From assembly GCA_016647705.1 (NCBI GenBank), contig CM028333.1:5239616-5303615 (forward strand): 64,000 nt of DNA. The letters are read 5' to 3'. A program made the position numbers and the translations under genes. Positions 2,595 through 54,391 of this stretch are shown in pieces. The first letter of the stretch is position 1. The number at the start of each line of letters is the position of its first letter. Under the pieces are notes generated by a model. The model ran no database searches. It saw only the letters and a program-made list of their open reading frames with translations, and was not told the origin of the DNA. The stretch is from Eucommia ulmoides (lineage: Eukaryota > Streptophyta > Magnoliopsida > Garryales > Eucommiaceae).

Positions 2595-2601
2595 CTACAT
2601 A

Positions 2602-2990: not shown

Positions 2991-3028
2991 ATACGACACT
3001 CCAGTTATGAAAAAAAAGAATTAATAGT

Positions 3029-3238: not shown

Positions 3239-3297
3239 ATTAACCCAAAAAAGAAGTTAGAATTATGATAAAATTGACTATGGATGAATTTTCTTAC

Positions 3298-4215
3298 AGT
3301 CATGATGCCTCTGATAATTTGATCGCTGTAATGTTCCGGTTCCTTTTCTTGGAGAGACAGCAAAACTTCAATCATCGTCTTCTTCTTTTCTCCGGCGACC
3401 TCCGGAATACTTTCTCCCTCTCTAGATCTCGTCGCCATGTTTCTTTTGTGTTCTTCGACCAGGTCTTGCATTGCCTTATCTCTCTTCTTGTGCAGCACCA
3501 TCATTCTTTTTTCCAGGCCTCTGGCCCCCACCAACCTCATCACCGGCAAGAAATCGACCATATTCGTCGCACCTATCAGACGGAAAGTTTCCTCTACTAT
3601 TTCTCTGAACTCACGCGCCGCTTCCGCCTCCGCCGAATTGTCCCCGTAGTATCTTTTCCCGGCTATCATCCTCATCATCACGTTCAGCGTTAACTCGAAG
3701 AAAACCGCCTTCATCTCCACCGTCCGATCGCCAGCGGAGTCGGCGAACAGCCTACGGATCATGAACTTGACCTCGTCGGCGCGCATGTCGTGGAGAAGTT
3801 GGAGGCGGTGGGAAGACAGCACTTCGATGGTCGAGATCCGGCGGATATTGCGCCAGTGGTGGCCGTAGGGCGCCCAGCCAATGGTGGAGTGGTTGTAGGC
3901 CAGGTGTTTGGCGCCGAGAAGCCGGGGGCGGTTCGCAAAGACGATGTCGTTCTTTGTAAAACATTCTTCCGCCGCCGACGGAGAGGAGACGAGGAGGACA
4001 CGGCGGGAGCCGAACTGGAGGAGCACTACAGAGCCGTAACGGTCGGAGATCTTGGATAAGGTCCGGTGGACAGGTTTCTTCAAGAGATAGAGGTGGCCGA
4101 TGAGGGGTAAATTTGGAAATGGGCTCGGTGGAAGGTTCTGTATCTTGTGGAGGAAATGCTTTGTGAAAGTGTATAGTGCTAAAATGAGCAGAGGGTATAG
4201 GATTAAGGTGTCCAT
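3298..4215 (-). CDS. P450 exon 1 (306 codons)
   Basis: Runs from the ATG at 4215 to ACT at 3298, followed by the donor GTAAG. It codes for the membrane anchor, hinge, substrate-recognition region 1 and helices A to H, ending in QIIRGIM just before the I helix. The start is the first in-frame ATG, lies in CCATGG context, and directly precedes the hydrophobic anchor. No stop interrupts this exon. Confidence 0.85.
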
Positions 4216-4254
4216 GGCTATTTCTTAGTGAAAATTTTGTAAGGTACTTTAGCT

Positions 4255-7969: not shown

Positions 7970-8027
7970 TGATATAGGAGAATCTCATCAATAGAAAATG
8001 ATATAGGAGAATCTCATCAAGTACACA
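7970..8027 (+). repeat. 29-bp tandem duplication across the 5' element boundary
   Basis: TGATATAGGAGAATCTCATC occurs at 7970 and again at 7999, each time preceded by GAAAA. Either could be the true left end. The duplicated unit covers the LTR tip plus the target site. Confidence 0.85.
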
Positions 8028-8678
8028 GCGTAGTCAATATACGCCCAAGTATAGAAGAACAACCAAACTGAAAGGTGAAATCCCCTCAGTGCTGAGCTAA
8101 GATGTCTTCCCAGCCGAGTTGAGGGTCGTCTCAGTGAAGAAATCCAGACTGGCAAACTGCGATCCGAATTGTCGAACTGACGAGTTGAGACACCCTCTGC
8201 TCGCCACTTCCACACTCGGGAGTTCACCAGGCCGTCGTGAGATTCTGGCCCATGGGCCTTTGCATATGGGCTCAAAAGCTAGCCCAGACGTTTAGAGGGC
8301 TAACCTGCCTGCTCATTGGCTGCCCAACGGGTTAGGTTAATTAACCCGAGCTCGGCTCCCTAATTTCGCGGCACTAATCAAGCACTAGCGTCTATAAATA
8401 CACCGGGGCACCCACTGCCCCAGAGGTACGTGACCACTATTGAACTCACTATACTTTCAGCTCTTCTCCCCCAGATACTTACTCTCACGCCGAAAGGACT
8501 TTACTGGGCAGAACCCCGGTGGGTCTTTGTGCAGGTGCTCGGAGTAGAAAAGCGGAGCTCAACTCGAAGATTGCCATCACCCCTGAATCCAACCAATTGC
8601 AGCACTGTCAGTCGTCTTGTGTCCCCGATATCCTCCCGGACCATACTGTTGACCCGTCACCACTTTTTGACATCAACA
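7999..8678 (+). repeat. 5' LTR of the Tat element (680 bp)
   Basis: Starts TGATATAGGAG, ends CATCAACA and matches 27499-28177 throughout. It contains a TATA-like TCTATAAATACA at 8391-8402, giving a plausible transcription start shortly after. A 29-bp tandem duplication at 7970-7998 repeats the first bases of the LTR together with the GAAAA target sequence. Confidence 0.9.
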
Positions 8679-8680
8679 GT

Positions 8681-8698
8681 TTGGCGCCGTCTGTGGGA
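8681..8698 (+). promoter_or_regulatory. Primer binding site of the Tat element
   Basis: TTGGCGCCGTCTGTGGGA begins two bases after the LTR terminus CAACA, the normal place for a tRNA primer site. The wording is shared by many plant Tat-type elements. I did not assign the tRNA. Confidence 0.85.
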
Positions 8699-8749
8699 AC
8701 GCACTAAAAGCCTCCCCTGATCGTCAGCTCCCCACGAAGTTAAGACTTG

Positions 8750-9258: not shown

Positions 9259-10746
9259 TGATAGGTGTGAAAAATCTATCTATTTCGAAACTCAATTTGT
9301 TAGTTTTCAAGCGTATTAGTTATATTTAATTGTGTTTTAGTTTGTTTTAGTGTAAAACAGGTGAATGGAAGTTAAAGGGCGATAAACAAGTGAAAACGGT
9401 AGAGAAACGATGAACAAAATGTGAAAAACAGGGTTTCAGTGAATGAAGACCACCGCCTAGGCGGAAAAGAGGCAAAATGTTGCAGTGCTGAAGTGCTGAA
9501 CCACCGCCTAGGCGAGAAATCGTTAGAATGTTGTGCCAGCAGCCACCGCCTAGGTAGAGAAACCACCGCCTAGGCGAAGATCCGACAGAGGCTTAAACCG
9601 ACTTAAACCACCGCCTAAGTGGTGAACCACCGCTTAGGCGGTGACACTCTGCACAGAAATATCTGAAAACAGATATTTTGAAGATATTTTCCCAAATCTT
9701 CTTTTTAACCCCTTTCTCTACCAATTGTTAAGAACCCCCTAGACCCTCTTAGAAGTGAGATGAGGCTTGGTTGATATTTTGAGAGCTCCTTCCACTTTAG
9801 TTAGGTTTAGATAATTTAGGGAGTAGATTAGATTAGTTTAGAGACTATTCTTGGCCATTTCTTGAAGAGCTAGAAGTGGAAGTTCATCAATGGAGAAGAG
9901 GAAACTCGGGAGGATTGTTTCTTGGCGAAAGTGGACTACTCCACTTTGAGATTTGATTTTTCTTCCCTTGTTTCCATCTTTGTACTCAATGTTTATTGTT
10001 GATATTGATGATCTCCTCTTGATTTAATGTTGTATTGGTTAAGAACATGTTAGTTTAATTAAAGATTAGTTAGAGAAAAATGTAGTTGTGTAAATACTCA
10101 TTTGGTTTAATATATGCTTCTTTAACGGTTGTTGCTTTTAAATTCGATTGTGTTTATCATTTGATGATGATCTTAGTATGCTTGTAATGGTATTAGGGTT
10201 AGATTTGAGAAACTAGGGTTTGACACTCGGGAGAGGTAACCCTAGATTCGGATTAGGGTAAACACATCGTTACAACCTAACGACCCGGGAGAGCGTTAGT
10301 TAGTATGCAATCGATGACGTTGGGTCAAGACTCACGCGGCCTAGAGTTGTTAAGACATTGAGGGGGACCTCTTTGTCGACACGAAGTCGCATACTCCCTC
10401 GTCTTACACTCGGAAGAGGTGGCAGAGGAGTTTACGAACCGAGATTGTCGGATACCTAAACTCCATTATTGTTAACTAAACGAAATCAAACATGTATTAA
10501 GTGAACGAAATCAATCCCTAATTAATCAACGTAGTTAATATTAACCTACTAATTGTAATTTAGCTTAGATTAATTTTAAATAATTTCTTTTATCGTTAGG
10601 ATAACATGAGACTACGTAAATTGCGGAATTCAATTATTCACACTTTTCTCTGTGGGAACGATATCCGATCTTCAAGATCCACTATATTAAAACTTAGATC
10701 TTGTATACTTGTGAGAGTAAGTAGCGGTGTATTTCACGCCCTACGA
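9259..10746 (+). mobile_element. Solo LTR 1 of a second gypsy-type family, inside gag
   Basis: Starts TGATAGGTGTG and ends GCCCTACGA. It is nearly the same as 13134-14571 along its whole length, and ends with the CTGTGGGAACGATATCC block and CGGTGTATTT text seen near the ends of plant gypsy LTRs. No internal region, PBS or second LTR accompanies it. No matching target duplication was found here (TCCAC on the left, AGGTG on the right). The first 400 bp carry a cluster of the palindrome CCGCCTAGGCGG and its variants. Confidence 0.75.
9449..9640. repeat. Cluster of CCGCCTAGGCGG-type palindromes
   Basis: The 12-bp palindrome or close variants (ACCACCGCCTAGGCG) occur about six times in 190 bp. The same cluster is at 13324-13497 in the second copy. 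Confidence 0.8.
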
Positions 10747-10849
10747 AGGTGAAGGAGGGGCGACCGAGTCGAGTCTCCCCCCGCGCATAGTAATATCGTA
10801 TAGTCTGATCATCACCCCCGTCGCTTTCGGGGGGTAGATTCACATTCCC

Positions 10850-12000
10850 CACCACGACAGCTGCTACCTCGCGCCGCTTTCAGTCAGGCTCGAGTCCAGC
10901 CAGGGGCCGAGATAGTGGTGGAGAGGCGCCTAACTGGCATGGAGGAGGCAGCCTTACAACAGATCCGAGGGACCAGAGGCCCGGCCGGGCTTCCTTCGGA
11001 GGTAAGATCTCATTTCATTGATGAAATTTTGAGGGAACCCTTGCCCGCACGATACACCCATCCCAAAATGATCCTCTATGATGGGATCACTGATCCGACA
11101 GACTACTTGTCCATCTTTAGGTCCTATATGGACCTACACATCGCCTCAATAGCAATGAGATGCAAGACATTTCTCCTCACCCTTACGGGGGCCGCCAGGG
11201 CATGGATTCAAACTTTGGCACCAGACTCCATTTCTAATTTTCATGAGATAGAGCTGCTCTTCCTTTCGCGATTTAGATAGTCGCGGCGTAGGCCAAAAAC
11301 CATGGCCCACATCCTCGCACTCCAGCAGCTACCCGATGAATCATTGGGGGATTATGGAGAGATGTTTTATAAAGAGATCATCGGTTGCGATGAGCTCAGC
11401 GATGTGGTCGCAATGAGCGCATTCATCGACGGCCTGAAGCATCGACGTCTCATATATAACCTCTACTCTAACTCAGCTCCTACTCTAGATACTGCCTTGG
11501 AAAGAGGCACGAGGTTCCATAATGCTGATGAAAGGGAAGCAAGCCGAAAGAATTGAGGAGGAGGCCAAAAGAAGAATGGGAAGGCTGAAGAAGGGCCGAA
11601 CAAACATCATGGATCCAAAAGGCTGCAGGCAGAAGGAAGGCTGGGACCGTTGCTTGGGGATCGGAGACCATTCCCACCCCAGGGGAACTGCCAACAGAAC
11701 TTCATATCGCTCACGGTCTCGGTGGCCACCGTCTTCGCTGAGAATGCGGAGAGGGATTTCTTTCCTCTTCCTCTACCCCCCAGCGGAAAACCAATGGAGA
11801 GATCAATGGACAAATACTGTTAATTCCACAAAGATCGGGGACACTTCACCGAGAATTGTTTCTGACTTCGGGAAGAAATCGAGGCCTTCATTAGCAGAGG
11901 ATACCTTGGTCGCTATGTTCGAAGGGACGACTAGGCTCCCAGAACGGAAGACCACGACCCTCACGACGAGCATAGGGGTCGTAAAAGAAGAAGGAACATA
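10850..12000 (+). pseudogene. Tat element gag core (fossil)
   Basis: Readings between 10915 and 11556 match the retrotransposon gag (capsid-like) domain: YDGITDPTDYLSIF, a GAARAWIQTL segment, and the downstream LPDESLGDY block, which corresponds to the usual gag LxQxxxESLRDY region. A basic tail follows. The region is broken. Confidence 0.75.
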
Positions 12001-12039
12001 AGTTATGCCTCTCTCAGGTCAGAAGAGAGTAGGAGTAAT

Positions 12040-12690
12040 GACGAACAAATGATTAATAGTGAGATTAACGTCATCCATGGCGGGTTAGGCCTTGGGAGAG
12101 AGACTCTCTCTTCCAAGAAGAGATACGAGCACAAATCCAAGAGAAAAGCGAGTGAAGACGTATTCGAGGTAAGCACGGTTGATGCTGCGGAGCACAATGT
12201 TATTTTATTCAACGAGGTGGACCTCAAGGATATACGCGTCCCTCACGACGACGCCCTCGTCATTGTGGCTCTCATCAATCATTACAAAATAGGACGGATC
12301 CTAGTGGATGGTGGTAGTTCCACTGATATTATCTTCAAATGGGCGTTCGAGAAAAGAAATGTGGACTCCGGCACGATAAAGCCGTCGACAGCCCCTCTAG
12401 TCGATTTTGGAAGGGATGTTGTGAACGCTGCCGGGTGGGTCTCACTTCCAGTATCCATCGGAGCCCATCCACGGACCTCCACTGTTTGGACCAAATTCCT
12501 AATCATGGACAGGCTGTCACCCTATAACGTAATCATGGGTCAATCCACGGTAGTGGCCCTCAAGGCTGTCTGCTCACCATACCACCAATCGATGAAATTC
12601 CCCACGGAGGGAGGTGTGGGAGTAGTGAGGGGTAACCAAGAGTCCTCCTGGGCTTGTGCTCGGAGGGCCTTAGAGAAGGGGAAATAGCAA
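12040..12690 (+). pseudogene. Tat element protease region (fossil)
   Basis: The reading carries the aspartic protease signature DGGSSTDI at about 12307-12330, preceded by the typical segment ALVIVALINHYKIGRILV. It is followed by the conserved NVIMGQ block at about 12520-12540 (RP...YNAIIGR in relatives). The domain is mostly open; the polyprotein around it is not. Confidence 0.75.
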
Positions 12691-13133: not shown

Positions 13134-14571
13134 TGATAGGTATAAAATACCTATCTATTTCGAAACCGAATTTGTTAGTTTTCAAGCGTATTAGTTATAT
13201 TTAATTGTGTTTTAGTTTGTTTTAGTGTAAAACAGGTGAAGGGACATTAAAGGGCAATAAACAAGCGAAAACGGTGAAGAAACGGTGAACAAAACGTGAA
13301 GAACTGGGTTTTGGTGCATGAAGACCACCGCCTAGGCAGAAAAGAGACAGAATGTTGGAGTGTTGAAGTGCTGAACCACCGCCTAGGCGAGAAAACGTCA
13401 GAATGTTGTGCCAACAGCCACCGCCTAGGCGAAGAAACCATCGCCTAGGCGAAGATCCGACAGAAGCTTAACCAACTTAAACCACCGCCTAGGCGGTGAC
13501 ACTCTGTGCAGAAATATCTATTTTTAGATATTTTGAAGATATTTTCCAAAAACCTTGCTTTTAACCTCTTTCTCCCCCAATTGTAAAAGGAAAAAATGAT
13601 ATTTGGAGAGCTCCTTCCACCTTAGTTAGGTTTAGATAATTTAGGAAGTAGATTAGATTAGTTTTAGGAAGTGTTCTTGGCCAATTCTTGAAGAGCTAGA
13701 AGATGAAGTTCATCAATGGAGAAGAGGAAGCTCGGGAGGATTGTTCTTTGGCGAAAGTGGACTACTCCACTTTGAGATTTGATTTTTCTTCCCTTGTTTC
13801 CATATTTGTACTTAATTTTTATTATTGATATTGATGATATCCTCTTGATTTAATATTGTATTGACTAAGAACATGTTAGTTTAATTAAAGATTAGTTAGG
13901 GATATATGTAGTTGTGTAAATACTCGTTTGGTTTAAAGTATGTTTCTTTAACAGTTGTTGCTTTTAAATCCGATTGTGTTTATCATTTGATGACGATATT
14001 AGTATGCTTGTAATGGTATTAGGGTTGGATTTGAGAATCTAGGGTTTGACACTCAGGAGAGATAACCCTGGATTCGGACTAGAGTAAACACATCGTTACG
14101 ATCTAACGACCCGGGAGGGCGTTAGTTGGTTGCAATCGATGACGTTGGGTCAAGACTCATGCGACCTAGAGTCGTTAAGACATTGAGGGGGACCTCTTCG
14201 TCGACACAAAATCGCGTATTCCCCCGTCTTACCCTCGGAAGAGGTGGCGGAGGAGTTTACGAACCGAGATTGTCGGATACCTAAACTCCGTTATTGTTAA
14301 CTAAACGAAATCAAACATGTATTTAGTGAACGAAATCAATCCCTAATTAATCAACTTAGTTAGGATTAACCCACTAATTGTAGTTTAACTTAGTTTAATT
14401 TTAAATCATGTCTTTAATCGTCAGGATAATATGAGACTACGTAAATTGCGGTATTCAATTATTCACACTTTTCTATGTGGGAATGATATTCGATCTTCAA
14501 GATCCACTATATTAAAACTTAGACCTCGTATACTTGCGAGAGTAAGTAGCGGTGTATTTTACGCCCTACCA
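13134..14571 (+). mobile_element. Solo LTR 2 (same family), inserted between protease and RT
   Basis: Starts TGATAGG and ends CTACCA, flanked by exact 5-bp target duplications GTGGT (13129-13133 and 14572-14576). It splits the start of the RT domain. By eye it is more than 90% identical to 9259-10746. Its first bases form a small hairpin (GATAGGTA...TACCTATC). Confidence 0.88.
13324..13497. repeat. Second cluster of CCGCCTAGGCGG-type palindromes
   Basis: Five copies of ACCACCGCCTAGGCG-like palindromes, the counterpart of 9449-9640. Confidence 0.8.
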
Positions 14572-14572
14572 G

Positions 14573-15290
14573 TGGTTTTGGCTCCCAAGGCTGGCAATAA
14601 ATGACGCATCTACGTTGATTTTAAAGACCTGAATAAAGTCTGCCCAAAAGACTTCTTCCCCCTGCCCAGCATTGACATAATCATAGATGCCACAGAAGGG
14701 TACGAGCGCCTGAGTTTCCTCGACGCTTATGCCGGGTATAACCAAATCCCAATGTTCCCCCTCGATAAGAGCAAAGCATCGTTAATCACTGATAAGGGTA
14801 CATACTGCTACAAGGTAATGTCGTTTAGGCTGAGCAACGCCGAAGCCACTTATCAACGACTAGTGAACAAAATGTTCAAGGAGGAGATCAGGCGGACGAT
14901 GAAGGTTTACATTGATGACATGTTGGTCAAGAGCTCAAGGGTCCCTGACCACACCCAACATCTCCACAACTGCTTCGAAAAACTCTGGGCTCACCGTATG
15001 AAGCTCAACCCAAACAAATGTATTTTTGGAGTTTCTGTGGGAAAGTTCCTGGGGTACATGGTCTCCCAGCGTGGCATCGATGCTAACCCCGATTAAATAC
15101 ATGCGATCCTCGGGATGGCCTCTCCTCGGAATAAGAAGGAGGTGCAGATGCTGACAGGAAGATTCACTGTCCTCAACCGCTTCATATCTAGAGCGTCGAA
15201 GAAGTGTCTGCCGTTCTTCAAAGTGCTCAGAGGCAACAAGAATTTTGGGTGGACCGACGAATGAGAGTCGGCTTTCCAAGCGCTCAAAAA
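14573..15290 (+). pseudogene. Tat element reverse transcriptase (fossil)
   Basis: Readings contain the RT landmarks in order: the DFKDLN-like block, LSFLDAYAGYNQIPM, CYKVMSFRLSNAEATYQRL and the catalytic YIDDMLVKS (about 14911-14937), then NPNKCIFGV and GKFLGYMVS. It is broken. The upstream part of the RT domain lies before solo LTR 2 (about 12980-13133). Confidence 0.82.
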
Positions 15291-15720
15291 TTATCTATCC
15301 TCTACTGCTCTGCTCAACATCCCGAATGATGGAAAAACTTTATACCTGTATATTGCCACCTCTACAACAGCGGTGAGCGCTGCTCTTGTAAGAGATGACG
15401 CCGGTGTCCAGCACCCAGTCTTTTACTCTAGCAGGATCTTGTCGAATGCCGAGATAAGGTACACTAAATTTGAGAAGCTGGCTTATGCCCTACTGGTGGC
15501 TTCCCGGAAGCTGAAACAGTATTTCCAAGCCCACGAGATCGTCGTCCTCACTGACCAGCCGATAAGACAAATTTTATATTTACCAGACATCTCGGGGCGA
15601 TTAATGAAGTATAGCCTCGAGCTAGGTCAGGTTTATATTGAGTACCGCCCTAGGACAGCCATCAAGGGCCAGGTCCTGGTAGATTTCATCGCTGAGCTCA
15701 CGTTTTCTGAGGACCATGAG
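15291..15720 (+). pseudogene. Tat element RNase H (fossil)
   Basis: Matches the gypsy RNase H domain: LYLYIATSTTAVSAALV, HPVFYSSRIL, EKLAYALLVASRKLK and HEIVVLTDQPI, in the usual order directly after RT. Confidence 0.8.
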
Positions 15721-15779
15721 CCACCCACCATTCACCCAGAAGCTAAAACAGTGGGAGAAGGGGGAACGTTGGGGGACTT

Positions 15780-16200
15780 AAGCCCATATACCGGTCCAGC
15801 AACATGGTGGTTGTTCACCGATAGATCCTCTAACACCAGTGGTTGTGGAGAGGGGATGGTGCTCATTACCCCAGACAATGAGGAGATGGAGTACGCCATG
15901 AGGCTAGGGTTCAGAACGACTAACAACAAGGTAGAGTACCAGGATCTGTTGGCCAGGCTCCGCCTGGCCAGGGAGTTCAATGTGACGACGTTGTCCGTCT
16001 TTTGCGACTCTTAGCTAGTCGTCAACCAGGTCAACGGGGATTATTTGGCAAAGGATTCCAGTATGACCACGTATCTTGAAAGGGTCAAAACCCTGATGGA
16101 GAAATTTGAAAAAGTCAATGTGTCCCAAATATCCCGGGAAGAGAACCGGCACGCTGTTGCCTTGGCAAACTTGGCCTCGACAATAGCGTTGACCCTGAAG
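15780..16200 (+). pseudogene. Second, archaeal-type RNase H domain (fossil), Tat hallmark
   Basis: The reading has WWLFTDRSSNTSGCGEGMVL, then TNNKVEYQDLLARLRLA (the NNxAEYxAL block of archaeal-type RNase H), then a FCDS block and a SREENRHA block. A second RNase H between the normal RNase H and integrase marks Tat-lineage elements. It is broken. Confidence 0.8.
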
Positions 16201-16289
16201 TGAAGTGTGCCTGTTGAGTATCTGGATGCTCCAAGCATAGTGATTTCTGACCAGGTTGCTCCAATCTATGAGCTTCATGACCATCCCAC

Positions 16290-17540
16290 TTGGATGGACC
16301 TCATTCAGAGATATTTGGAAGACGGGACGCTACCCGACGACCACAACGAAGCAAGAAGGATGCGATACAGGTCTGCCAGATATGGCATTCTGGATGGGGT
16401 CCTTTATCGACGTTCTTTCTCTGGACCATACTCTCGGTGTTTACGGCGGGAAGAGGCCGACTACGTCATGAGAGAAATCCATGAGGAAATTTGTGGCAAT
16501 CACTCGGGGGGCAGGGCTTTGGCTGGCAAACTCCTCCGCCAAAAGTATTTTTGGCCAAAAATGTTGGTAGACGTGAATGAGTTTGTAAAAAAATACAACA
16601 AATGCCAACGTTTTGGTCCCAACCCCTATTTACCGCCAACAATGATGTTGCCCATGGTGAGCCCATGGCCCTTTGCCCAGTGGGGAATAGACCTGTTGGG
16701 CTCTTTTCCTCAGGCCACCGGTCAAAGGAAATTTATCTTCGTCGCTATCGATTACTTCACCAAGTAGGTAGAGGTCGAACCCCTGGCTCGTATCACCAAA
16801 TAGAAGATCTGGGACTTTGTATAGAAGTCGATGGTGTGCTGATTTGGGATCCCAAGGTCAATCGTATCCGACAACGAAACTTAGTTCGACAACGATTTGT
16901 TTGTTTATTTTTGCTCCGGCCTAGGTATCCGCACACACTTTGCGTCCCCTGGTCATTCACAAGCTAATAGACAAGTCGAGGTTGCGAATCGAATAATTTT
17001 GCACGATTTAAATACCAGGCTTGACAAAGCCAAGAGGAGGTGGGTGGAGGATCTTTACCCAGTCCTCTGGGCATACCACACCACTTCCCGAACCCCAACC
17101 AGAGAGACACCATTCACAATGACATTTGGATCCGAATCCGTAATTCCTACGAAAATTGGATTGCCAACCTTTCAAATGTCACTCAAGGGGCAGGACCAAT
17201 AGACGAATGACGCAATGCTGGCCCTTAACTTGGACTTTTTGGAAGAACGATAGAGAACGCTCGAGTATGCTAAGCGGCATAGCAGTGGGCAACTCGATAC
17301 TATGATAGAAGGGTGCGACCACGCCATTTTGACATCGGAGACCTGGTCCTCAGAAAGGTTACCCTAGCGACCAAGGAGTCAAATACGGGAAAGTTGGCCC
17401 CCAGCTGGGAGGGACCTTATCGCGTGATAAGTATTGCAAGACCGGGCACCTATGAGTTCGAAACTAAGGAAGGCGTTCCGCTATGATACCCGTGGAACGT
17501 CGACCATCTCAAGCAATACCACTGTAGGACTGAGGTCATT
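16290..17540 (+). pseudogene. Tat element integrase (fossil)
   Basis: The HHCC zinc region can be followed: HEEICGNHSGGRALAGKL, then KYNKCQRFG. The core WGIDLLGSFP (catalytic Asp block) and the later GQANRQVEVANR-like region at about 16950-16990 follow, and AYHTTSRTPTRETPF lies near 17070. The C-terminus reaches about 17540. It is broken in several places. Confidence 0.78.
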
Positions 17541-18129: not shown

Positions 18130-20790
18130 CTAAGTCTTCCAAAAAGGCCGGGCTGGGGACCTATTTCTCTCTAGAAACGCCCTCGACGTCCACAACGTCG
18201 ACATTGGTGTCTTCATCGCCCTCGGCCTCCTCACTGCCAGCATCTTCAGCACTAGCCTCGTGAGTTCGCCCCTCGAAAGCCCCTTCAACAACCCGTTCCA
18301 CCGCCAGCTCACCTTGTTGGGGAAACTCCATCCCAACGCCCAAGCAGTCAAACTTCATATGATGGCTCTGAAGGAAACGGAGCGTGGCCTTGTTGCTGTC
18401 ATCCTTGAATTCGGCAACAACCTCGTACTTCTGATTTTCGAATTCTTCACTGGATTTGTAATCCTCAACGGCTTTCTGCTCTGCTCACCGGATAGTCTTC
18501 CCTCTCTGCTGCTCTTCTCTCTTGAGCTTCTTCTCCAGTTCCTTCACCCTCTTCTCCAGGTCGACCTTCTGTCTTTCAAAGATGTCCCATTCTTTGGTAA
18601 CGAGGTCGTGCCTAGCTTGTAGGCTATGGTGGGCCTGGGCAGCGAGCTGGAGGTCGTCGATCAAGCGGTTCACCCTCACCTCGGCAACATTCTTCTCGGA
18701 CCTCAACATGGCCTCCTCCATTATGCTCTCAGAGATCCGGCCAAAAACCACCGACATCCGAAGCATGCACTGCGTAAGGACGAGAAATTCATCACACTTA
18801 GAAAAATTTAGTGGAAAAAAGCGAAACGAAAAGTAAACTGTGGAAGAGTTTTATGGAGACTTGATCATAAATGGCCTGGCGCATCATGTTGCCGATGCTC
18901 TCCCCCTCCATCAGTTCCTTATCGTTGGGAGGCATCATGCGACGGAGATAGCCCGACATCACCTCAGGGCTCTTCAGTAGCGCACAATCAGCCGGCAGCC
19001 TAGTGTTCGGGACCCCGAAAAAAGATCCATCAACAATCGGCTCGAATGAGGCCCCGGGCACAAACCTCGCCCTTTTCAAGTACTTATGCTTTTTCTGCTT
19101 CCCCTCGTGGGCCTTTCTCTTTCCCTTGTCAGAATGGCGGGGAGATGAGTCACCACTTAGGGTGTGCACAAATTGCCGAGAACCCGACTTGGATTAGGGT
19201 GTGTCCCTGATAACGATGCCCAGCAGGGCAGGTGAGCAACTCCAGGTTGGCGTCCTGGGAAGCCGTGTGGTTTGGACGGCTTGCGATCCTCCAGCATGTT
19301 CAGAACTAGTCGCCTTCTCCGCCTCGGCAGCCTCCTTGGCTTTCTTCTAGAGAAATTTCTGGACCGCCATCGCCTTGTCCATAGCTGCAATATTCAACAA
19401 TATTTTTAGAAATTCTTCTGTCTAGACCGACAACATCCGGTTCTATACAAGAATATCTACGTGAATCGAGCGTAACACATGTAAAATTACCAAGTATGAA
19501 GAATTGACATAGCAGAAAATTCCTTACCATTGTCTAAGTCGAGGAGGAAATCGAGTATGGCTGAGATGTCCTGTGGTAAAAACCAGAAGGCTATGAAGAG
19601 CTGAGAGGCGAGCAGGGTATTCACGTCCTTGAAGGCAATCCTCAAGACCTTGTCTCTCTGCTCGGTAATTTCTCTGCTCAGCTCCGGTCTTTTCTTCTTG
19701 GGTGGTTCTTTAACTGCAGAAGATCATGAAGACAAGGGTGTTAGTGTGCAGGCAATGGTAAACCTAAAAAATAAAACACTCTCCCTAAGGGACCGCAGCC
19801 TTACCAACTTTTTCCCATTACATCTGGAGGGGGTACCTTTCTTCTTCTTCCAAGCTGGATTGCCAACCGCTTCCTCCGATATAGAAGAACTGGGGCTTTC
19901 ATCGGTGAATGGAAGAGTTCAGGTCCTTCAGGAAAGTTGACTTGGACGAAATGTAACACCACCCAGCGCCCTAGGAGAGTGGCTTAAGGAAGAACAGAGC
20001 CCTGAAGAGCTCAGTGCTCGGCTCGAGTCCCTCGCCCGGAAGATGATATACAAAGCCACCAGGGCCCTTATACCATTTGGAGCAATTTGTGATGAACACA
20101 AATGGTACTCCGCACAAATGGCCCTGATCCACCAGTGGAGAGAAAAACGAATACCCGCCTCCAGTTGTTTCTTATAGACTGTCATGAAGCCAGATAGTGG
20201 CATACAGGCCCGATCGTCGGGCCCTGGAACAATGGTCGTGACCTCTTCTGGGATGAAAAATTCGCTCTGACAGTGGAGGACTAACTCTTCGGTCATGGTT
20301 GTTTTAGTGTTCTATACCGGACTCGAGGGTGGGACTTTTATGAATAGTTTTTTTGGCCCAGCGTTATGCATCTCATTTTCATAAAGTAACCTGGGGATGG
20401 AGACGCCGATATGGATCTCCACCACTGTGACGGTTTTGGGAGGGACCCCGACCCCAGTGTCAAGTGATGTAGATACCCCACCGCTCTCGTCGGTATGGCT
20501 CACCACGAATGCACAGTCTTCTGGACATGATTGGATAGCACCGCTTATTTCATGGATCCTGGCCATAGCACTCGAGGAGGTGTCTCCCGGAGCAGGACGT
20601 CGCTCTACCCTGAATTGAAGGGAGCCGGAGGACGACCGTTCCGAGGAGTCGGATCCCGAGTCGGCAATAGAACCAGAAGTGGAAAATAAAGAATGAGAAG
20701 AGGACCCCGACATTTTATTCGGACAAAGGAGACAAAAAGTACCATTGCCGAGGAGGAAGAATAAGCTCTGGAAATTTCGCAAGTGCTAAA
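18130..20790 (-). pseudogene. Antisense ORF region of the Tat element (fossil)
   Basis: On the opposite strand to pol there are several adjoining open readings. One, about 20782-20312, is Ser-rich with MSGSSSHSLFSTSGS. One, about 20296-19928, has PLSGFMTVYKKQLEAGIRF and CSSQIAPNGIRALVALY, the wording of the plant proteins annotated as putative transposon protein. One near 18766-18485 is coiled-coil-like (RVKELEKKLKREEQQ). Antisense ORFs between pol and the 3' LTR are known in some Tat-lineage elements such as Grande. Their function is unknown. The region may have introns; it is broken, and I do not join the parts. Confidence 0.65.
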
Positions 20791-20977
20791 TGAAAGGTAG
20801 GGGCCACCATTTATAAAAAGAGGGTGTGCCCAAACGAAAGGTCACCCAGGCCAACGACTGGGGATGCCTTGATTAAAACGCTACGACCACGTGGCATCCA
20901 TCCAACGATAGTGGTATAGCCTATCACGCAAGTCATAATGGGGGGCACATGTTGCGCATTTGCCACGTGTGAAAGGG

Positions 20978-23900
20978 AAGGCTCTCAAACTTCCCACCTT
21001 TTAGTAATCCTAAGGTATGGAAAATGGCTGACCTCACGAGCCTACGTACTGTCAGCTCAGATAAAATCAAGGAGGGGAAGGCTCTCAAACTTCCCACTTT
21101 TCAAAAAGTCTAAGGCGTGAAAATGGCCGAGCTCACGAGCTTACGTACTCTTAGCTCGGACAAAATCAAATGGGGGAAGGCTCTCAAACTTCCCACCCTT
21201 CAAAAAGTCTAAGGCATAGAAAATGGCCGAGCTCACGAGCCTACGTACTCTCAGCTCTGACAAAATCAAAGTGGAGAAGGCTCTCAAACTTCCTACCCTT
21301 CAAAAAAGCCTAAGGCATGGAAAATGATTGAGATCACGAGCCTACGTACTCTCAGCTTGGACAAAATCAAAGGGGAAAAGGCTCTCAAATTTCCCACTCT
21401 TCAAAAAGTCTAAGGCATAGAAAATGACCGAGCTCACGAGCCTACATAATCTCAGCTCGGACAAAATCAAAGTGGGGAAGGCTCTCAAACTTCCCACCCT
21501 TAAAAAAAGCATAAGGCATGGAAAATGGTTGAGCTCACGAGCCTACGTACTCTCATCTTGGACAAAATCAAAGGAGGGAAGGCTCTCAAACTTTCCACCT
21601 TTCAAAAAGTCTAAGGCGTGAAAATGGTCGAGCTCACGAGCCTACGTACTCTCAGCTCGGACAGAATAAAAGAGGGGAAGGCTATCAAACTTTCCACCCT
21701 TCAAAAAGTCTAAGGCATGGAAAATGACCGAGCTCACTAGCCTACGTACTCTAAGCTCGGACAAAATCAAAGGGGATAAGGCTCTCAAACTTCCCACCTT
21801 TTAAAAAGTCTAAGGCGTGAAAATGGCAGAGCTCACGAGCCTACGTACTGTCAGCTTGGACAAAATCAAAGGGGGGAAGGCTCTCAAACTTCCCATCCTT
21901 CAAAAAGTCTAAGACGTAAAAATGGCCGAGCTCACGAGCCTACGTACTCTCAGCTCGGACAGAATCAAAGGGGGGAAGACTCTCAAACTTTCCACCCTTC
22001 AAAAAGTGTATGGCATGGAAAATGGCCGACCTCACGAGTCTACGTACTCTCAGCTCAAATAAAATCAAAGGTGAGAAAGGCTCTCAAACTTTCCACCCTT
22101 CAAAAAGTCTAAGGCGTGAAAATGGCCTAGCTCATGAGCTTACGTACTCTCAGCTCGGACAGAATCAAAAGAGGGAAGGCTCTCAAACTTTTCACCCTTC
22201 AAAAAGTCTAAGGCATAGAAAATGGCTGAGCTCACGAGCCTACATACTCTCAGCTCAGACAAAATCAAAAGGGAGAAGGCTCTCAAACTTCCCACCTTTT
22301 AGTAATCCTAAAGTATGGAAAATGGCCGAGCTCACGAGCCTACGTACTCTCAGCTCGGACAGAATTAGAAGGGGGAAGGCTCTCAAACTTTCCACCCTTC
22401 AAAAAGTCCAAGGCATGGAAAATGGCTGAGCTCACGAGCCTACATACTCTTAGCTCACACAAAATCAAAGGGGGAAAGACTATCAAACTTCCCACCCTCC
22501 AAAAAGTCTAAGGCATGGAAAATGGCCAAGCTCACAAGCCTACATACTCTTAGCTCACACAATCAAAGGGGGAAGGCTCTCAAACTTCCCACCCTCCAAA
22601 AAGTCTAAGGCATGGAAAATGGCCGAACTCACGAGCCTACATACTCTTAGCTCACACAAAATCAAAGGGGTTAAGGCTCTAAAACTTTCCGTCCTTCAAA
22701 AAGTCTAAGGTGTAAAAATGGCCGAGCTCATGAGCCTAAGTACTCTCAGCTCGGACAGAATCAAAGGGGGAAAGGCTCTCAAACTTCCCACCCTTCAAAA
22801 AGTCTAAGGCGCGAAAATGGCCGAGCTCACGAGCCTACGTACTCTCAGCTTGGACAGAATCAAAAAGGAGAAGGCTCTCAAACTTTCCCCCCTTCAAAAA
22901 GTCTAAGGCATGAAAAATGGCCGAGCTCACAAGCCTACGTACTCTCAGCTCGGATAAAATCAAAGAGGGGAAGGCTCTCAAACTTTCCACCCTTCAAAAA
23001 GTCTAAGGTATGGAAAATGGCAGAGCTCATGAGCCTACGTACTCTCAGTTCGGACAAAATCAAAGTGGGGAAGGATCTCAAACTTCCCACCCTTCAAAAA
23101 AGCCTAAGACATGGAAAATGGTCGAGCTCACGAGACTACGTACTCTCAACTCGGATAAAATCAAAGGGGGGAAGGCTCTCAAACTTCTCACCCTCTAAAA
23201 AGTCTAAGACATGGAAAATAGCCAAACTCACGAGCCTACGTACTTTCAGCTCGGATAGAATCAAAGTGAGGAAGGCTCTCAAACTTTCCACCCTTCAAAA
23301 AAGCCTAAGGCATGGCAGATTGCCAAGCTCACGAGCCTATGTACTCTCAACTCAGACAAAATCGAAGTTGGGAAGGCTATCAAACTTCCCACCCTTCAAA
23401 AAGTCTAAGGCGTGAAAATAGTCGAGCTCACGAGCCTACGTACTCTCAGCTCGGACAGAATTGAAGGGTGGAAGGCTCTCAAACTTTCCACCCTTCAAAA
23501 AGTCTAAGGCATAGAAAGTGGCCGAGCTCACGAGCCTACGTACTCTCAGGTTGGAGAAAATCAAAGGGGGGAAAGGCTCTCAAATTTCTCATCCTTCAAA
23601 AAGTCTAAGGCGTGACAATGGCCGAGCTCACGAGACTACGTACTCTCAGCTCGGACAGAATTAAAAGAGGGAAGGCTCTCAAATTTTCCACCATTCAAAA
23701 AGTCTAAGGCATGGAAAATGGCTGAGCTCACAAGCCTGCGTACTCTCAGCTCGGACAAAATCAAAAGGGGGAAGGCTGTCAAACTTGTCACCCTTCAAAA
23801 AGTTTAAGGCATGGAAAATGACCGAGCTCACGAGCCTACGTACTCTCAGCTCAGACAAAATCAAAGGTGGGAAAGCTCTCAAACTTCCCACCCTTCAAAA

Positions 23901-24885
23901 AGTCTAAGGCGTGAAAATGGACGAGCTCACGAGCCTACGTACTCTCAGCTTGGACAGAATCAAAGGGGGGAAGGTTCTCAATCTGTCGACCCTTCAAAAA
24001 GTCTAAGGCATGGAAAATGGCCGAGCTCACGAGCCTACGTACTCTCATCTCGGACAAAATCAAAGGGGGGAAGGCTCTTAAACTTCCCACCCTTAAAAAA
24101 TTCTAAGGCGTAAAAATAGCCAAGCTCACGAGCCTACGTACTCTCAGCTCGGACAGAATTAAAGGGGAGAAGGCTCTCAAACTTTCCATCATTCAAAAAG
24201 TCTAAGGCATGGAAAATGGCCGAGCTCACGAGCCTACGTACTCTCAGCTCGGACAAAATCAAAGGAGAGAAGGCTCTCAAACTTCCCACCTTTCAAAAAG
24301 TCTAAGGCATGAAAATGGCCGAGCTCATGAGCCTACTGACTCTCATCTCGGACAAAATCAAATGGGGGAAGGCTCTCAAACTTCCCACCCTTCAAAAAGT
24401 CTAGGGCATAAAAAATGGCCGAGCTCATGAGCCTACGTACTCTCAGCTCGGACAGAATCAAAGGGAGGAAGGGTCTCAAACTTCCCACCCTTCAAAAAGT
24501 CTAAGGCATAGAAAATGGCTGAGCTCACAAGCCTACGTACTCTCAGCTCGGACAAAATCAAAGTGGGGAAGGCTCTCAAACTTCCCACCCTTCAAAAAAG
24601 CTTAAGGCATAGCAAATGGCCGAGCTCACGAGACTACATACTCTCAGCTCGGACAAAATCAAAGGGGAGAAGGCTCTCAAACTTTCCACCCTTCAAAAAG
24701 TCTGAGTCGTGAAAATTGTTGAGCTCACGAGCCTACGACTCTCAGCTCGGACAGAATCATAGGGGGGAAGGCTCTCATACTTTCCACCCTGCAAAAAGTC
24801 TAAGGCATGGAAAATGGCCGAGCTCATGAGCCTATGTACTCTCAGCTCGGACAAAATCGAAGGGGGGACGGCTTTCAAACTTCCC
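20978..24885. repeat. Tandem array A, about 39 units of about 100 bp
   Basis: Each unit carries GAGCTCACGAGCCTACGTAC, TCTCAGCTCGGACAAAATC, GGCTCTCAAACTTCCCACC and TTCAAAAAGTCTAAGGC. Adjacent units often alternate between two subtypes: AAGGCGTG with GACAGAAT and TTTCCACC, versus AAGGCATGG with GACAAAAT and TTCCCACC. That points to a dimer of about 200 bp as the amplified unit. The array lies inside the Tat element, between the antisense ORF region and the 3' LTR. Confidence 0.92.
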
Positions 24886-27237
24886 ACCCGTGAAAATTTC
24901 TAAGGCATTGGAAATGGCCAACCTCACGACCTGACACTCTCAGCTTGGCCACTTTCAAATGGGGGGAGGTTGTCGAACTTTCCACCTTGAAAAATTCTAG
25001 GCTTTGAAAATTGTCGACCTCATGACCTGACGGACATTTAGCTCGGTCACTTTCAAAAGGAGGGAGGCTCTCAAACTTTCTACCTTGAAAAATTCTAAGC
25101 ATTGGAAATTGCCGACCTTAGGACCTGACAAACTCTCAGCTTGGTCACTTTCAAAAGGGGGGAGGCTCTTAAACTTTCCACTCTTGAAAAATTCTAAGGC
25201 ATTGAAAATGGCCGACTTCACGACCTAACGGACTCTCCGCTTAGCCAATTTCAAAAGGGGAGAGGCTCTCAAACTTTCCACCCTTGAAAAATTCTAAGGC
25301 ATTGGAAATGGCCGACCTCACGACCTGACAGACTTTCAGCTCGACCACTTTCAAAAAGGGGGAGGTTATCAAACTTTCTACCCTTGAAAAATTCTAAGGC
25401 ATTGGAAATGGTCGACCACACGACTTAACGGACTCTCAGCTCGGCCACTTTCAAAAGGGGGGAGGCTCTCAAACTTTTCACCCTTAAAAAATTCTAAGGC
25501 ATTGGAAATGACCGACCTCACGAGCTGACGCACTCTCAGCTCGGCCACTTTCAAAAGGGGGGAGGCTTCCAACTTTCCACCCTTGAAAAATTCTAAAGCA
25601 TTGGAAATGACCAACCTCACGACCTGACAGACTCTCAGCTCGACCACTTTCAAAATGAGAGAGGCTCTCAAACTTTCCACCCTTGTAAAATTCTAAGGCA
25701 TTGAAAATGGCCGACCTCACGACCTAACGTACTCTCAACTCGGCCACTTTCAAAATGGGGGAGGCTCTCAAACTTTCCACCCTTGAAAAATTCTAGGCAT
25801 TGGAAATAGCCGACCTCACGGCTTGACGGACTCTCAGCTCGGTCACTTTCAAAAGGGGAAAGGCTCTCAAACTTTCCACCATTGAAAAATTCTAAGGCAT
25901 TAGAAATGACCGACTTCACGACCTGACGAATTCTCATCTCGGCCACTTTCAAAAAGGGGGAGACTCTCAAACTTTCCACCCTTAAAAAATTCTAAGGTAT
26001 TGGAAATGGCCGACCTCACAACCTGAGGGACTCTCAACTCGGTTACTTTCAAAAGGGGGAGGCTTCCAACTTTCCACCCTTGAAAAATTCTAAAGCATTG
26101 GAAATGGCCGACCTCACGACCTGACAGAATCTCAGCTCGACCACTTTCAAAATGGGGGAGGCTCTCAAACTTTCTACCCTTGTAAAATTCTAAGGCATTG
26201 GAAATGGCCGACCTAACGTACTCTCAACTCGACCACTTTCAAAAGGGGGGAGGCTCTCAAACTTTCCACCCTTGAAAAATTCTAGGCATTGGAAATGGCC
26301 GGCCTCACGGCCTGACGGACTCTCAGCTCGGTCACTTTCAAAAGGGGGAAGGCTCTCAAACTTTCCACCCTTGAAAAATTCTTAGGCATTGGAAATTACC
26401 GACCTCACAACCTAACGGACTCTTATCTCGGCCACTTTTAAAAAGGGGGAGGCTCTCAAAATTTCCACCTTGAAAAATTCTAAGGTATTGGAAATGGCCG
26501 ACCTCACAACCTGAGGGACTCTAAACTCGGTCACTTTCAAAAGGGGGGAGGCTCTCAAACTTTTCGCCCTTGAAAAATTCTAAGGTATTGGAAATAGACG
26601 ACCTCACGACCTGACGGACTCTCAGCTCGGCCACTATCAAAAGAGGGAAGGCTCTAAAAATTTCCTCCCTTGAAAAATTCTAAGGCATTAGAAATAGCCA
26701 ACCTCACGACCTGATGGACTCTCTGCTAGGCAACTTTCAAAATGGGAGAGGCTCTCAAACTTTTCACCCTTGAAAAATTCTAAGGCATTGGAAATGGCCG
26801 ACCTCACGACCTGACATACTCTCAGCTCGACCACTTTCAAAAGGAAAAATGCTCTCAAACTTTCCACCCTTGAAAAATTCTAAGGCATTGGAAATGGCCG
26901 ACCTCACGACCTGACGGACTCTCAACTGGGCCACTTTCAAAAAGGGGGAGGCTCTCAAACTTTCCACCCTTGAAAAATTCTAAGGCATTGGAAATGGCCA
27001 ACCTCATGACCTGACGGACTCTCAGCTCAGCCACTTTCAAAATAGGGGAGGCTCTCAAACTTTCCACCCTTGAAAAATTCTAAGGTATTGGAAATAACCG
27101 ACCTTACGACTTGACGGACTCTCAGCTCGGCCACTTTCAAAATGGAGGAGGCTCTCAAACTTTCCACCCTGGAAAAATTTTAAGGCATTGAAACTGGCCA
27201 ACCTCACGACCTGACGTATTTTCAGCTCGGCCAACAT
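24886..27237. repeat. Tandem array B, about 23 units of about 100 bp, related to A
   Basis: The unit keeps the A layout and length but differs throughout: GCATTGGAAATGGCCGACCT, CACGACCTGACGGACTCTC, GCTCGGCCACTTTCAAAAG, GGCTCTCAAACTTTCCACCC and TTGAAAAATTCTAAGG. The switch from A to B falls within about one unit near 24886. No clear dimer alternation is visible in B. Confidence 0.92.
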
Positions 27238-27480
27238 TCAAAACATGAAAGACTCCAAATTCTCACTGATCACCGCCACTTCAATCGGACTGTCGACCTG
27301 CCGAACAGACAAAATGTCTTATCATCAGCCTGGACTCTGCTTTTTGCCCTCTTTCTTACCGCCATTCTTCCCCCCCAAGGGTCAATGGTGTGCCGCTTTT
27401 GCATTTTGTGATCGTCTTTCACTACTACTACCCGTTTGCTCTTTCAAAATCTCGAGCCCGTCACGTTTCTCTCACGCCCT

Positions 27481-27498
27481 CGGGACTTGGGGGGCAAC
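27481..27498 (+). promoter_or_regulatory. Polypurine tract of the Tat element
   Basis: GGGACTTGGGGGGCAAC immediately precedes the 3' LTR start at 27499. G-rich tracts at this place prime plus-strand synthesis. Confidence 0.7.
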
Positions 27499-28177
27499 TG
27501 ATATAGGGGAATCTCGTCAGGTACACCACGTGGTCAATATTCGCCCAAGTATAGAAGAACGGCCGAACTGAGAGCTGAAGTCCCCTCAGTGTTGAGCTGG
27601 GACGCCCCTCCAGCCGAGCTGAGGGCCGTCTCAGTGAAAAAATTCAGACCAGCAAACTGCGATTCAACCTACCAAACTGACGAGCTGAGGCACCCTCTAC
27701 TCGCCACCTCCACACTCGAGAGTTCACCAGGCCGTCGTAAGATTCTGGCCCATGGGCCTCTGCATATGGGCTCGAAAACCAGCCCAGACGTTTAGATGGT
27801 TAACCTACCCGCTCATTGGCTGCCTAGCGGGTTAGGTTAATTAACCCGAGCTCGTCTTCCTAATTTCGTGGCACTAATCAAGCACTGGCGCCTATAAATA
27901 CACCAGGGCACCCACTGCCCAGAGGTACGTGACCACTACTGAACTCACTATACTTTCAGCCCTTCTCCCCCGGATACTTACTCTCACGCCGGAAGGACTT
28001 TACCGGGCACAACCCCTATGGGTCTTTGTGTAGGTGCTCGGAGTAGAAGAGTGGAGCTCAGCTCGGAGATTGCCATCACCCGTGAATCCAACCAATTGCA
28101 ACACTGTCAGCCGTCTTGTGTCCCCGATATCCTCCCGGACCATACCGTTGACCCGTCACCACTATTTGACATCAACA
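27499..28177 (+). repeat. 3' LTR of the Tat element (679 bp)
   Basis: Starts TGATATAGGGG, ends CATCAACA and is followed by the target duplication GAAAA (28178-28182). It matches the 5' LTR end to end. Confidence 0.92.
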
Positions 28178-28182
28178 GAAAA

Positions 28183-36591: not shown

Positions 36592-37000
36592 GTGAGAGAA
36601 GGTTCTTCGTCAAAGGCTCATCCATTCGTCATTTCATTTCCACACCGGAGCTGGAGGCTGCTCGTCGTCGAAAGCTCGTCGTTGAAGGCTCGTCCGTTCG
36701 TCGTCGGAAGCTCGTCGTCGAAGGCTCGTCCATTCGTCGTCGGAAGCTCATCGTTGAAGGCTTGTTCGTTCGTCGTCAGAAGCTCATAATCTTCTGAAGC
36801 TCATCCATTTCATTGAAGGCTACGTCCGTTCGTCGTCGAAAGCTCGTCGTCGAAGCCTCGTCCGTTCGTCGTTGGAAGCTCGTCGTCGAAGACTCGTCCA
36901 TTCGTCGTCGGAAGCTCGTCATCGAAGGCTCTTTCGTTCGTCACTGGAAGCTAATCGTCATCTAAAGCTTATCCATTTCGTTGAAGGTTGCGTTGGTCGT
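36592..37000 (+). repeat. 36-bp minisatellite, in-frame 12-residue repeat
   Basis: Units such as GTCGTCGGAAGCTCGTCG followed by TCGAAGGCTCGTCCGTTC recur about eight to nine times. Because the period is a multiple of three, the reading 36592-36789 stays open and gives repeated SSSKARPFVVG. Whether this was ever translated is unknown; it lies just inside the left MULE terminus. Confidence 0.7.
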
Positions 37001-37559
37001 CGTCGGAAGGTCATTATTGACGGCTTGAAGGATTGTTGTTGCAAGACCCGGACTTTAGCATGTACGTCATTATTTTCAATTTAGAGCATTTAGAAAAAAT
37101 TCGGGGTAAAAAATTGAGTTGATTAAAAACCAAATTAAAAGTTTATGGGTAAAATTTGTAAAATTGTCAATTAAAATCTAAATATTTAAAATGTGAAGGG
37201 TGAAATTATAATTCTAGAAACTCATAAATGTTGAATTGAACTAAAATGAAGATTTTAAGAAATTAGGGGGAGGGAAGAGTATTTAAGCACATGGGTCTTT
37301 ATATAAACTCATATATATAGTCATATATTCGTGCATGTGTGTGCAGTGAGGGCGAAAGACAGAGAGAGAAGAGAACCAGCGACGTGGCGTGAAGAGATCA
37401 AACATCCATCCACTTAATTCATGCATATATATAGGATTCATTCATGCTAGAAGGATTGGGAAAAGCTTAAGAAGAAGAAACTCAGAAATCTAGAAAGAGA
37501 GGAAGAGAATCGGAGTGTGTCCTGTTCACCGGCGGTGTATGGGTATCGTCGTCATCGAT

Positions 37560-45143: not shown

Positions 45144-45152
45144 TAAATTTAA

Positions 45153-54382: not shown

Positions 54383-54391
54383 TAAATTTAA

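What the first reader, a model, noticed from the sequence alone, without database searches (positions are those of the whole stretch)
20978..27237. Two related 100-bp satellite-like arrays placed end to end inside one retrotransposon
Arrays A (about 39 units) and B (about 23 units) have the same length and layout but differ throughout, and switch abruptly near 24886. Tandem repeats near the 3' LTR of Tat/Ogre elements are known to seed genomic satellites. Here two divergent families in one element suggest two separate amplification rounds from one ancestor, and a likely source of satellite DNA in this genome.
Basis: partly seen in the sequence, partly recalled or inferred. Interest (0 to 1): 0.75.

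Follow-up and report, generated by a model that had tools for sequence, protein, structure and literature searches.

The report
Retrotransposon repeats that became satellite DNA
A plant retrotransposon carries two tandem arrays of 100-base repeats, and elsewhere in the same genome those repeats appear to have grown in place into satellite blocks of tens to hundreds of thousands of bases, a known route to satellite DNA seen here unusually clearly.

Summary
Window 20975-27242 is one 100-bp-period array: 39 A units, one A/B hybrid (switch at about 24883-24892) and 23 B units. It lies inside a Ty3/gypsy element (7999-28177) with Retand-type anatomy. The pair is a family trait: A nearest pol, then B, in 11 of 12 copies read. 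Unit divergence (12.7-12.8%) is close to LTR divergence (11.0%), so both arrays were nearly uniform at insertion.

A forms blocks of about 435 kb (C74, to the contig end) and at least 249 kb (C10), both seen by sampling; B forms one of 46.8 kb (C8). The C74 and C8 blocks are still joined to an element's antisense gene. The commonest letters of the units match the element's at 99 of 100 columns in each block. Arrays that long must have grown in DNA after insertion (inference).

This is a new, well-resolved member of a known kind: satellites from 3' repeats of Tat-clade elements. Direction from element to satellite is inferred. Centromere location and any function are untested.

The parts
7994..7998 (.). 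5' target site duplication GAAAA (partner 28178-28182)
   Evidence: identical 5-mers beside the LTR ends
7999..8678 (+). 5' LTR (TG...CA)
   Evidence: direct repeat with the 3' LTR, 88.9% identity, p = 0.110, K2P = 0.122; ends read
8679..8701 (+). putative primer binding site (GTTTGGCGCCGTCTGTGGGAACG)
   Evidence: sequence directly 3' of the 5' LTR; that such a motif is a PBS is recalled
10804..12687 (+). gag and protease region, ORFs in pieces
   Evidence: Retrotrans_gag E = 0.0026, below cut-off; no Pfam hit for 11935-12687; the stretch matches copies L027, L031 and L035 at 84-86% over most of its length
14605..15096 (+). reverse transcriptase
   Evidence: RVT_1 E = 1.2e-20
15265..16014 (+). 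RNase H, followed by the start of a second (archaeal-type) RNase H at about 15799-16011
   Evidence: RT_RNaseH_2 E = 8.7e-18; RNase_H 0.014 and RVT_3 0.016 in the window piece, below cut-off; RVT_3 E = 2.2e-6, above cut-off, in family copy L030 between RH and INT
16204..16767 (+). integrase
   Evidence: Integrase_H2C2 E = 4.2e-10
18485..20785 (-). antisense accessory gene (broken ORFs); Transposase_28-like stretch within 19928-20311
   Evidence: Transposase_28 E = 0.0039 here, below cut-off; above cut-off (31.2 against 26.2 bits) in family copy L027:9602-10000:-
20786..20974 (-). promoter-like spacer of the antisense gene, between it and array A: TATAAA at 20810-20815, CACGTG at 20888-20893 and 20964-20969
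   Evidence: aligned in 12 copies: TATAAA in 10 of 12, at least one CACGTG in 12 of 12
20975..24864 (+). array A, 39 units of about 100 bp
24865..24962 (+). A/B hybrid unit, switch at about 24883-24892
24963..27242 (+). array B, 23 units of about 100 bp
27243..27498 (+). spacer between array B and 3' LTR, ending in a polypurine tract (GGGACTTGGGGGG)
   Evidence: matches 10 other copies (L026, L028-L036) at 84-90% over nearly its whole length; tract read
27499..28177 (+). 3' LTR
28178..28182 (.). 3' target site duplication GAAAA

Best explanation
The two arrays are the family-wide 3' tandem-repeat region of a Retand-type (Tat clade) LTR retrotransposon, lying between its antisense Transposase_28 gene and its 3' LTR. 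Within the transposing lineage, A and B were each kept nearly uniform and were carried into new insertions together. After insertion most arrays simply decayed, unit by unit. In a few insertions the array instead lengthened in the chromosome by repeated exchange or slippage between units and blocks of units, and became satellite DNA: A to about 435 kb on C74 and at least 249 kb on C10, B to 46.8 kb on C8. Shown: the arrays, their family-wide order, the long arrays (C74 and C10 by sampling), their junction to the antisense gene in two cases, the same commonest unit at 99 of 100 columns, and block duplications. Inferred: growth after insertion (the arrays are far longer than any retrotransposon RNA), unequal exchange as the means, and the direction from element to satellite.
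For: Family trait: A next to the antisense gene, then B, in 11 of 12 copies read; the 12th (L035) has B only. Long arrays: 16 of 16 C74 stretches read from 145,476 to the contig end (7 of 10 kb, 9 of 0.8 kb, about 66 kb of array in all) hold A; 6 of 6 C10 stretches read between 27,712,010 and 27,900,800 hold A, and exact 34-mers run on to 27,961,201; 6 of 6 C8 stretches read between 41,158,071 and 41,204,902 hold B. Junctions: the C74 block starts at the same point beside the spacer as in ordinary copies; the C8 array (7 A units, then B) starts there too, but with the last 28 or so bases of the spacer missing. Same unit: with no unit sorted out by type, commonest letters differ at 1 of 100 columns for C74 and C10 against window A and for C8 against window B, and distances between block and element exceed a star by 0.5-1.1%. 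Exchange: 1,622 bp at 99.3% repeated 1,378 bp further on in C10; exact 34-mers spaced by 1,065 bp on C74; hybrid units with at least two breakpoint positions and a second hybrid unit in L028. Uniform at insertion: unit divergence 12.7% and 12.8% against LTR divergence 11.0%; the young C array is 3.7%.
Against: Units in the long blocks are more divergent (16-20%) than those in the elements read (8-16%), so the blocks are older, or mutate faster, than these insertions; the elements' arrays could in principle have been captured from a satellite. Neither C74 nor C8 shows a retained 3' end: C8 ends in unrelated DNA without the spacer and LTR in the 4 kb read, and C74 ends with the contig. No junction with an antisense gene was read for C10. 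C74 and C10 were sampled, not read through. On C74 the orientation is reversed at 400,001, and 283,001-287,400 holds no array.
Confidence: 0.82

Rival explanations
1. Capture: A (and B) were already chromosomal satellites, and an ancestral element picked up pieces of them, which then spread with it.
For: The long blocks are more diverged within themselves than the element arrays (0.180, 0.203 and 0.159 against 0.082-0.156), so they look older than the insertions read.
Against: The C74 and C8 blocks begin inside an element, beside its antisense gene. Unit distances fit a star around the element's own unit, though the trees are unrooted and mostly unresolved. Tandem repeats at this place are common in the Retand lineage generally (Vicient 2025, abstract and passages).
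Confidence: 0.12
2. The long blocks are ordinary satellites that only happen to have element copies inserted at their edges.
For: Elements do sit near the C10 block: a C-type element lies at about 27,965,001-27,969,870 in the opposite orientation.
Against: On C74 and C8 the break falls inside the element, with array and antisense gene in the normal order and orientation; a chance insertion would bring its own 3' LTR between gene and block.
Confidence: 0.04
3. The long blocks are assembly artefacts made by collapsing or chaining many element copies.
For: No reads were available; C74 is a 580-kb contig of unknown place.
Against: Units inside the blocks differ from each other by 16-20%, so ordinary long reads would place them uniquely (inference). 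The five C74 stretches of 10 kb that are array throughout contain no LTR or coding pieces of the family. C10 and C8 blocks lie inside contigs of 53 and 80 Mb.
Confidence: 0.04

Closest known systems
Retand lineage of plant Ty3/gypsy elements (Vicient 2025, PMC11963269: outline, abstract and passages seen; Neumann 2019, PMC6317226: passages seen)
   Same: Long pol-to-3' LTR region, antisense gene with Transposase_28, archaeal RNase H between RNase H and integrase, tandem repeats before the 3' LTR.
   Different: Here two diverged families of equal unit length lie end to end in the same element and both have grown into long blocks; the Retand passages that I saw do not describe satellites made from them.
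Ogre-derived satellites of Lathyrus sativus (Vondrak et al., PMC7004042: passages seen)
   Same: Short arrays downstream of pol, occasionally expanded into satellite arrays; one pair of satellites (FabTR-54 and FabTR-56) adjacent in a fixed direction.
   Different: Ogre, not Retand; shown from single reads there, from assembled contigs with the junction inside one element here.
Grande of maize and its antisense gene 23 (from passages of PMC7264820; the original papers were not seen)
   Same: Antisense gene before the 3' LTR, driven by its own promoter upstream of it.
   Different: No expression was tested here; the promoter is judged only from a TATA box and CACGTG motifs.
82-bp repeat of Gypsy/TAT elements in Coffea pericentromeres (title only, in a reference list seen)
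   Same: Tandem repeat of the 3' end of Tat elements found as pericentromeric DNA.
   Different: Different unit length; text not seen.

Membership tests
Tat clade, Retand lineage | Ty3/gypsy order of coding domains (RT, RH, INT) | tested here: met
   RVT_1, RT_RNaseH_2, Integrase_H2C2 in that order
Tat clade, Retand lineage | archaeal RNase H between RNase H and integrase | tested here: met
   RVT_3 E = 2.2e-6 above cut-off in family copy L030; window piece E = 0.016, below cut-off
Tat clade, Retand lineage | antisense ORF with Transposase_28 between pol and 3' LTR | tested here: met
   PF04195 above cut-off in L027; below cut-off in L034 and L032 and in the window; no hit in the five antisense pieces of L030 and L029 scanned
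Tat clade, Retand lineage | place in a tree of RT-RH-INT with reference elements | not tested
   no labelled plant reference elements were on hand
Ogre | extra ORF upstream of gag (recalled) | tested here: not met
   only 571 bp lie between 5' LTR and the gag match in copy L027, too little for such an ORF
satellite DNA | long contiguous tandem arrays (tens of kb or more) | tested here: met
   46.8 kb B on C8; about 435 kb A on C74 and at least 249 kb on C10, by sampling
satellite DNA | heterochromatic or centromeric location | not testable with these tools
   C10, C8 and C15 arrays lie at 0.52, 0.52 and 0.54 of contig length, a C14 array at 0.79; centromere positions unknown

The most novel reading that the evidence does not exclude
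The 100-bp unit is a repeated control module of the element's antisense gene: the arrays lie directly upstream of its promoter-like spacer, A and C units carry a dyad (CCGAGCT, 19 bases, AGCTCGG), and the antisense protein, whose Transposase_28 domain others predict to bind DNA, binds the unit. Array length would then tune the element's own expression, and the satellite blocks would be large reservoirs of binding sites for a retrotransposon protein.
Probability: 0.08. Interest if true: 0.8.

Novelty: new member of a known kind. Interest (0 to 1): 0.42.

Why it matters
It shows in one genome the stages of a path from a retrotransposon's internal repeat to satellite blocks of hundreds of kilobases: uniform short array in a young subfamily, decayed array in old insertions, lengthened array still joined to its element, and long block. 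It also shows both of two neighbouring repeat families doing so, which allows growth and decay of A and B to be compared within the same elements. The kind of event is already known.

Tried and rejected
RNA structure of the unit. Single units fold somewhat better than shuffles (z -0.7 to -2.5, 6 folds). On 18 units 87.2% of cells pair (at most 54.2% when the partners are slid), but no pair changes on both sides and the shuffled mean is 88.0%. No covariation, so no support for a selected RNA fold.

Higher-order period-2 repeat in the window's A array. Lag-2 identity is 86.2 against 84.7-85.8 at the other lags, too small to matter.

Elevated decay at CpG as the sole reason for the divergence of the long blocks. 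CpG columns do differ more (0.19 against 0.10 in C74), but the transition/transversion ratio is 1.2-1.5 in the blocks and 2.1-3.1 in the elements, so extra age is the simpler reading.

C10's 3' LTR as the end of the C10 block. Rejected, because it belongs to a C-type element in the opposite orientation.

Closer precedents in the pea CEN6 and hop centromere papers (PMC10027222, PMC12371157; passages): none in what I saw.

Mended on recheck. In one search I had dropped units of unclear type (27 of 636 on C74, 1 of 63 on C10, 5 of 245 in other copies), and 79 of 1,302 units had already been dropped for having under 90 columns. Types had been assigned with 12 of the same columns that the tree used. 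Without that sorting, the commonest letters differ at 1 of 100 columns in each of the three blocks (0, 1 and 0), and a tree without the 12 columns needs 3 changes instead of 2. I had also first taken the C8 junction to be identical to the others; it lacks about 28 bases.
Full report
WHAT IS IN THE WINDOW. Self-match at lag 100 is 0.619; the highest value in 200 shuffles is 0.274. It splits into 39 A units, one hybrid and 23 B units. Mean identity is 85.7% within A, 84.3% within B and 73.0% between them; the two commonest-letter units are 84% identical. The hybrid unit (24865-24962) is A at its first two diagnostic columns and B from column 27 onward, which puts the switch at about 24883-24892.

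THE HOST ELEMENT. LTRs 7999-8678 and 27499-28177 (p = 0.110, K2P = 0.122) run from TG to CA and are flanked by GAAAA on both sides. Between them lie gag pieces, RT, RNase H, integrase and a set of antisense ORFs at 18485-20785, then the arrays, a 256-bp spacer with a polypurine tract, and the 3' LTR. RVT_3 lies between RNase H and integrase in a family copy. Transposase_28 passes its cut-off in one copy's antisense ORF; it is below cut-off in two other copies and in the window, and five further antisense pieces gave no hit. By the features given in Neumann 2019 (passages) and Vicient 2025 (abstract and passages), this is Retand-type anatomy. An RT tree was not possible. Copy L027 has only 571 bp between LTR and gag match, which leaves no room for the upstream ORF that I recall for Ogre.

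A SPACER THAT LOOKS LIKE A PROMOTER. Between the antisense gene and array A lie about 190 bp that align in 12 copies (including those on C74 and at the C8 block), with TATAAA in 10 of 12 (not in the C74 copy) and one to three CACGTG in 12 of 12. Maize Grande gene 23, an accessory gene of this kind, has its own promoter (PMC7264820, passages). The arrays are therefore the upstream region of an antisense gene. That this matters for expression is untested.

THE PAIR IS A FAMILY TRAIT. Twelve copies had this region read: the window, L025, L026 and L028-L036. They were chosen from the best matches of three searches and so are not a random draw. In 11 of 12, A lies next to the antisense gene and B beyond it; one (L035) has B only. 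In L025, the copy at the C8 block, no LTR follows B. The window's 39 A units are the most; the other ten with A have 6-17. Two copies (L028, L031) have a hybrid or B unit inside A. The A-to-B switch falls between columns 18 and 33 in 6 of 11 copies (window, L025, L028, L030, L032, L033); L026 and L036 are compatible with that; L034 is a mosaic; L029 and L031 switch between columns 68 and 86, and L031 also has a B-to-A switch. Hybrids thus seem to have arisen more than once, by exchange between the arrays.

ARRAYS WERE UNIFORM AT INSERTION. Units differ within the window element by 12.7% (A) and 12.8% (B, with the hybrid counted in), against 11.0% between its LTRs. Three other LTR pairs (two of them partial) give 9.1-13.3%, and arrays of the ten other loci scored give 8.2-15.6%. 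Units of one element are hardly more alike than units of different elements (A 87.0 against 86.0%, B 86.6 against 85.4%). Most divergence is therefore decay since insertion, from near-uniform A and near-uniform B.

LONG BLOCKS. In the held genome (946,670,599 bases, 391 contigs) the A pattern has 601 matches at up to one mismatch, the B pattern 118 and a third type, C, 4,282; reversed controls 0 in each. On C74 (580,526 bp) an element (RNase H, integrase, antisense gene) runs into A at 145,476, and 16 of 16 stretches read from there to the contig end hold A; about 66 kb of about 435 kb was read. The stretch at 400,001 is inverted, and 283,001-287,400 is not array. On C10 6 of 6 stretches between 27,712,010 and 27,900,800 hold A, and exact matches run to 27,961,201; probes at 27,705,001 and 27,970,001 hold none. 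On C8 B runs from 41,158,071 to 41,204,902 (6 of 6 stretches read), then 7 A units, the spacer and the antisense gene. Its other end is unrelated DNA with no spacer or LTR in the 4 kb read. C15 has a piece of the antisense gene at 31,600,001 and A at 31,604,887-31,623,066 (pattern matches and one stretch); its ends were not read. By the match rate per unit in C74 (63 of 690) and C10 (3 of 71), those two blocks would account for about 500 of the 601 A matches (extrapolation).

JUNCTIONS. The C74 block meets the spacer at the same base as the window and L034 do. At the C8 block the join is at the same place, but about 28 bases of the spacer end and a few of the first unit are missing.

THE BLOCKS ARE MADE OF THE ELEMENT'S UNIT. 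With no unit sorted out by type, the commonest letters differ at 1 of 100 columns between window A and C74 (636 units), window A and C10 (63), and window B and C8 (163); A and B differ at 17. Distances between block and element exceed a star by 0.5, 1.1 and 0.8%. In a tree of 227 of the 1,223 aligned units, A, B and C are each one side of a branch, at support 91, 79 and 95. Those labels were partly set with the same columns; with the 12 diagnostic columns left out and labels by place, 207 units need 3 changes (A and B then not exact sides, C still one at 92; shuffled mean 72). Most inner forks are unresolved. The blocks' own units differ by 16-20%, so the blocks are older or faster-mutating than the insertions read.

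A THIRD TYPE. C units lie in a sister subfamily. Its LTR is 74% identical to the window's. At the 17 columns where A and B differ, C sides with A at 8, with B at 7 and is private at 2. The last unit before its spacer is B-like, so the A-like then B-like order seems to predate the split of the subfamilies (inference from one end read, with a hint from a B-pattern match at C10:20,809,145 beside an LTR at 20,809,450).

MECHANISM. Blocks of 47-435 kb cannot have passed through a retrotransposon RNA (established knowledge of element size), so they grew in DNA. Block duplications (1,622 bp at 99.3% in C10; 1,065-bp spacing on C74) and repeated hybrid units fit unequal exchange. C10, C8 and C15 arrays lie at 0.52, 0.52 and 0.54 of their contigs, as would suit pericentromeres, but centromeres were not located, and a C14 array lies at 0.79.

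NOVELTY. That tandem repeats of Tat-lineage 3' regions become satellites is established for Ogre in Lathyrus (PMC7004042, passages), including one pair of neighbouring satellites in a fixed direction. Searches asked for satellite origin from retrotransposons, Retand repeats, Tat repeats and array expansion; among the listings and passages seen I found no description of this A/B pair. That is no proof of absence, and the plant was not identified.

Noticed in passing
9259-10744 and 13134-14571: Two copies (87.7% identical) of one sequence interrupt the element, one before gag and one before RT. The second starts TG, ends CA and has a 5-bp duplication GTGGT, so it looks like a solo LTR of another family; pieces of it also lie in or near other stretches (L022, L025, L028, L036, L051).
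   Followed up: partly
G000, e.g. C1:32476640-32478146 with LTR at C1:32478567; L079:1-4562: A sister subfamily of the element, apparently younger, carries a third 100-bp unit type, C (4,282 pattern matches; units 3.7% diverged in L079/L066), mixing A and B letters.
   Followed up: partly
L040 (G000:C74:400001-400800): The long A block is inverted here relative to the other 15 C74 stretches read.
   Followed up: no
L037-L039 (G000:C74:310001-370800): These parts of the C74 block have 26-bp duplications and periods of 126 and 226 besides 100.
   Followed up: no
25558-25757 and 26055-26246: Two successive B units look duplicated within the window's B array, 497 bp apart; the first of each pair has the unusual start GGGGGAGGCTTCCAACTTTCC.
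   Followed up: no
1974-4224 (-): ORFs resembling a plant cytochrome P450 gene in two exons (family recalled, not searched).
   Followed up: no
36662-37009: 36-bp period repeat within a larger 168-bp period.
   Followed up: no
54375-55501: AT-rich array with nested periods of about 63, 118, 133 and 367 bp, also matching 44814-45152.
   Followed up: no
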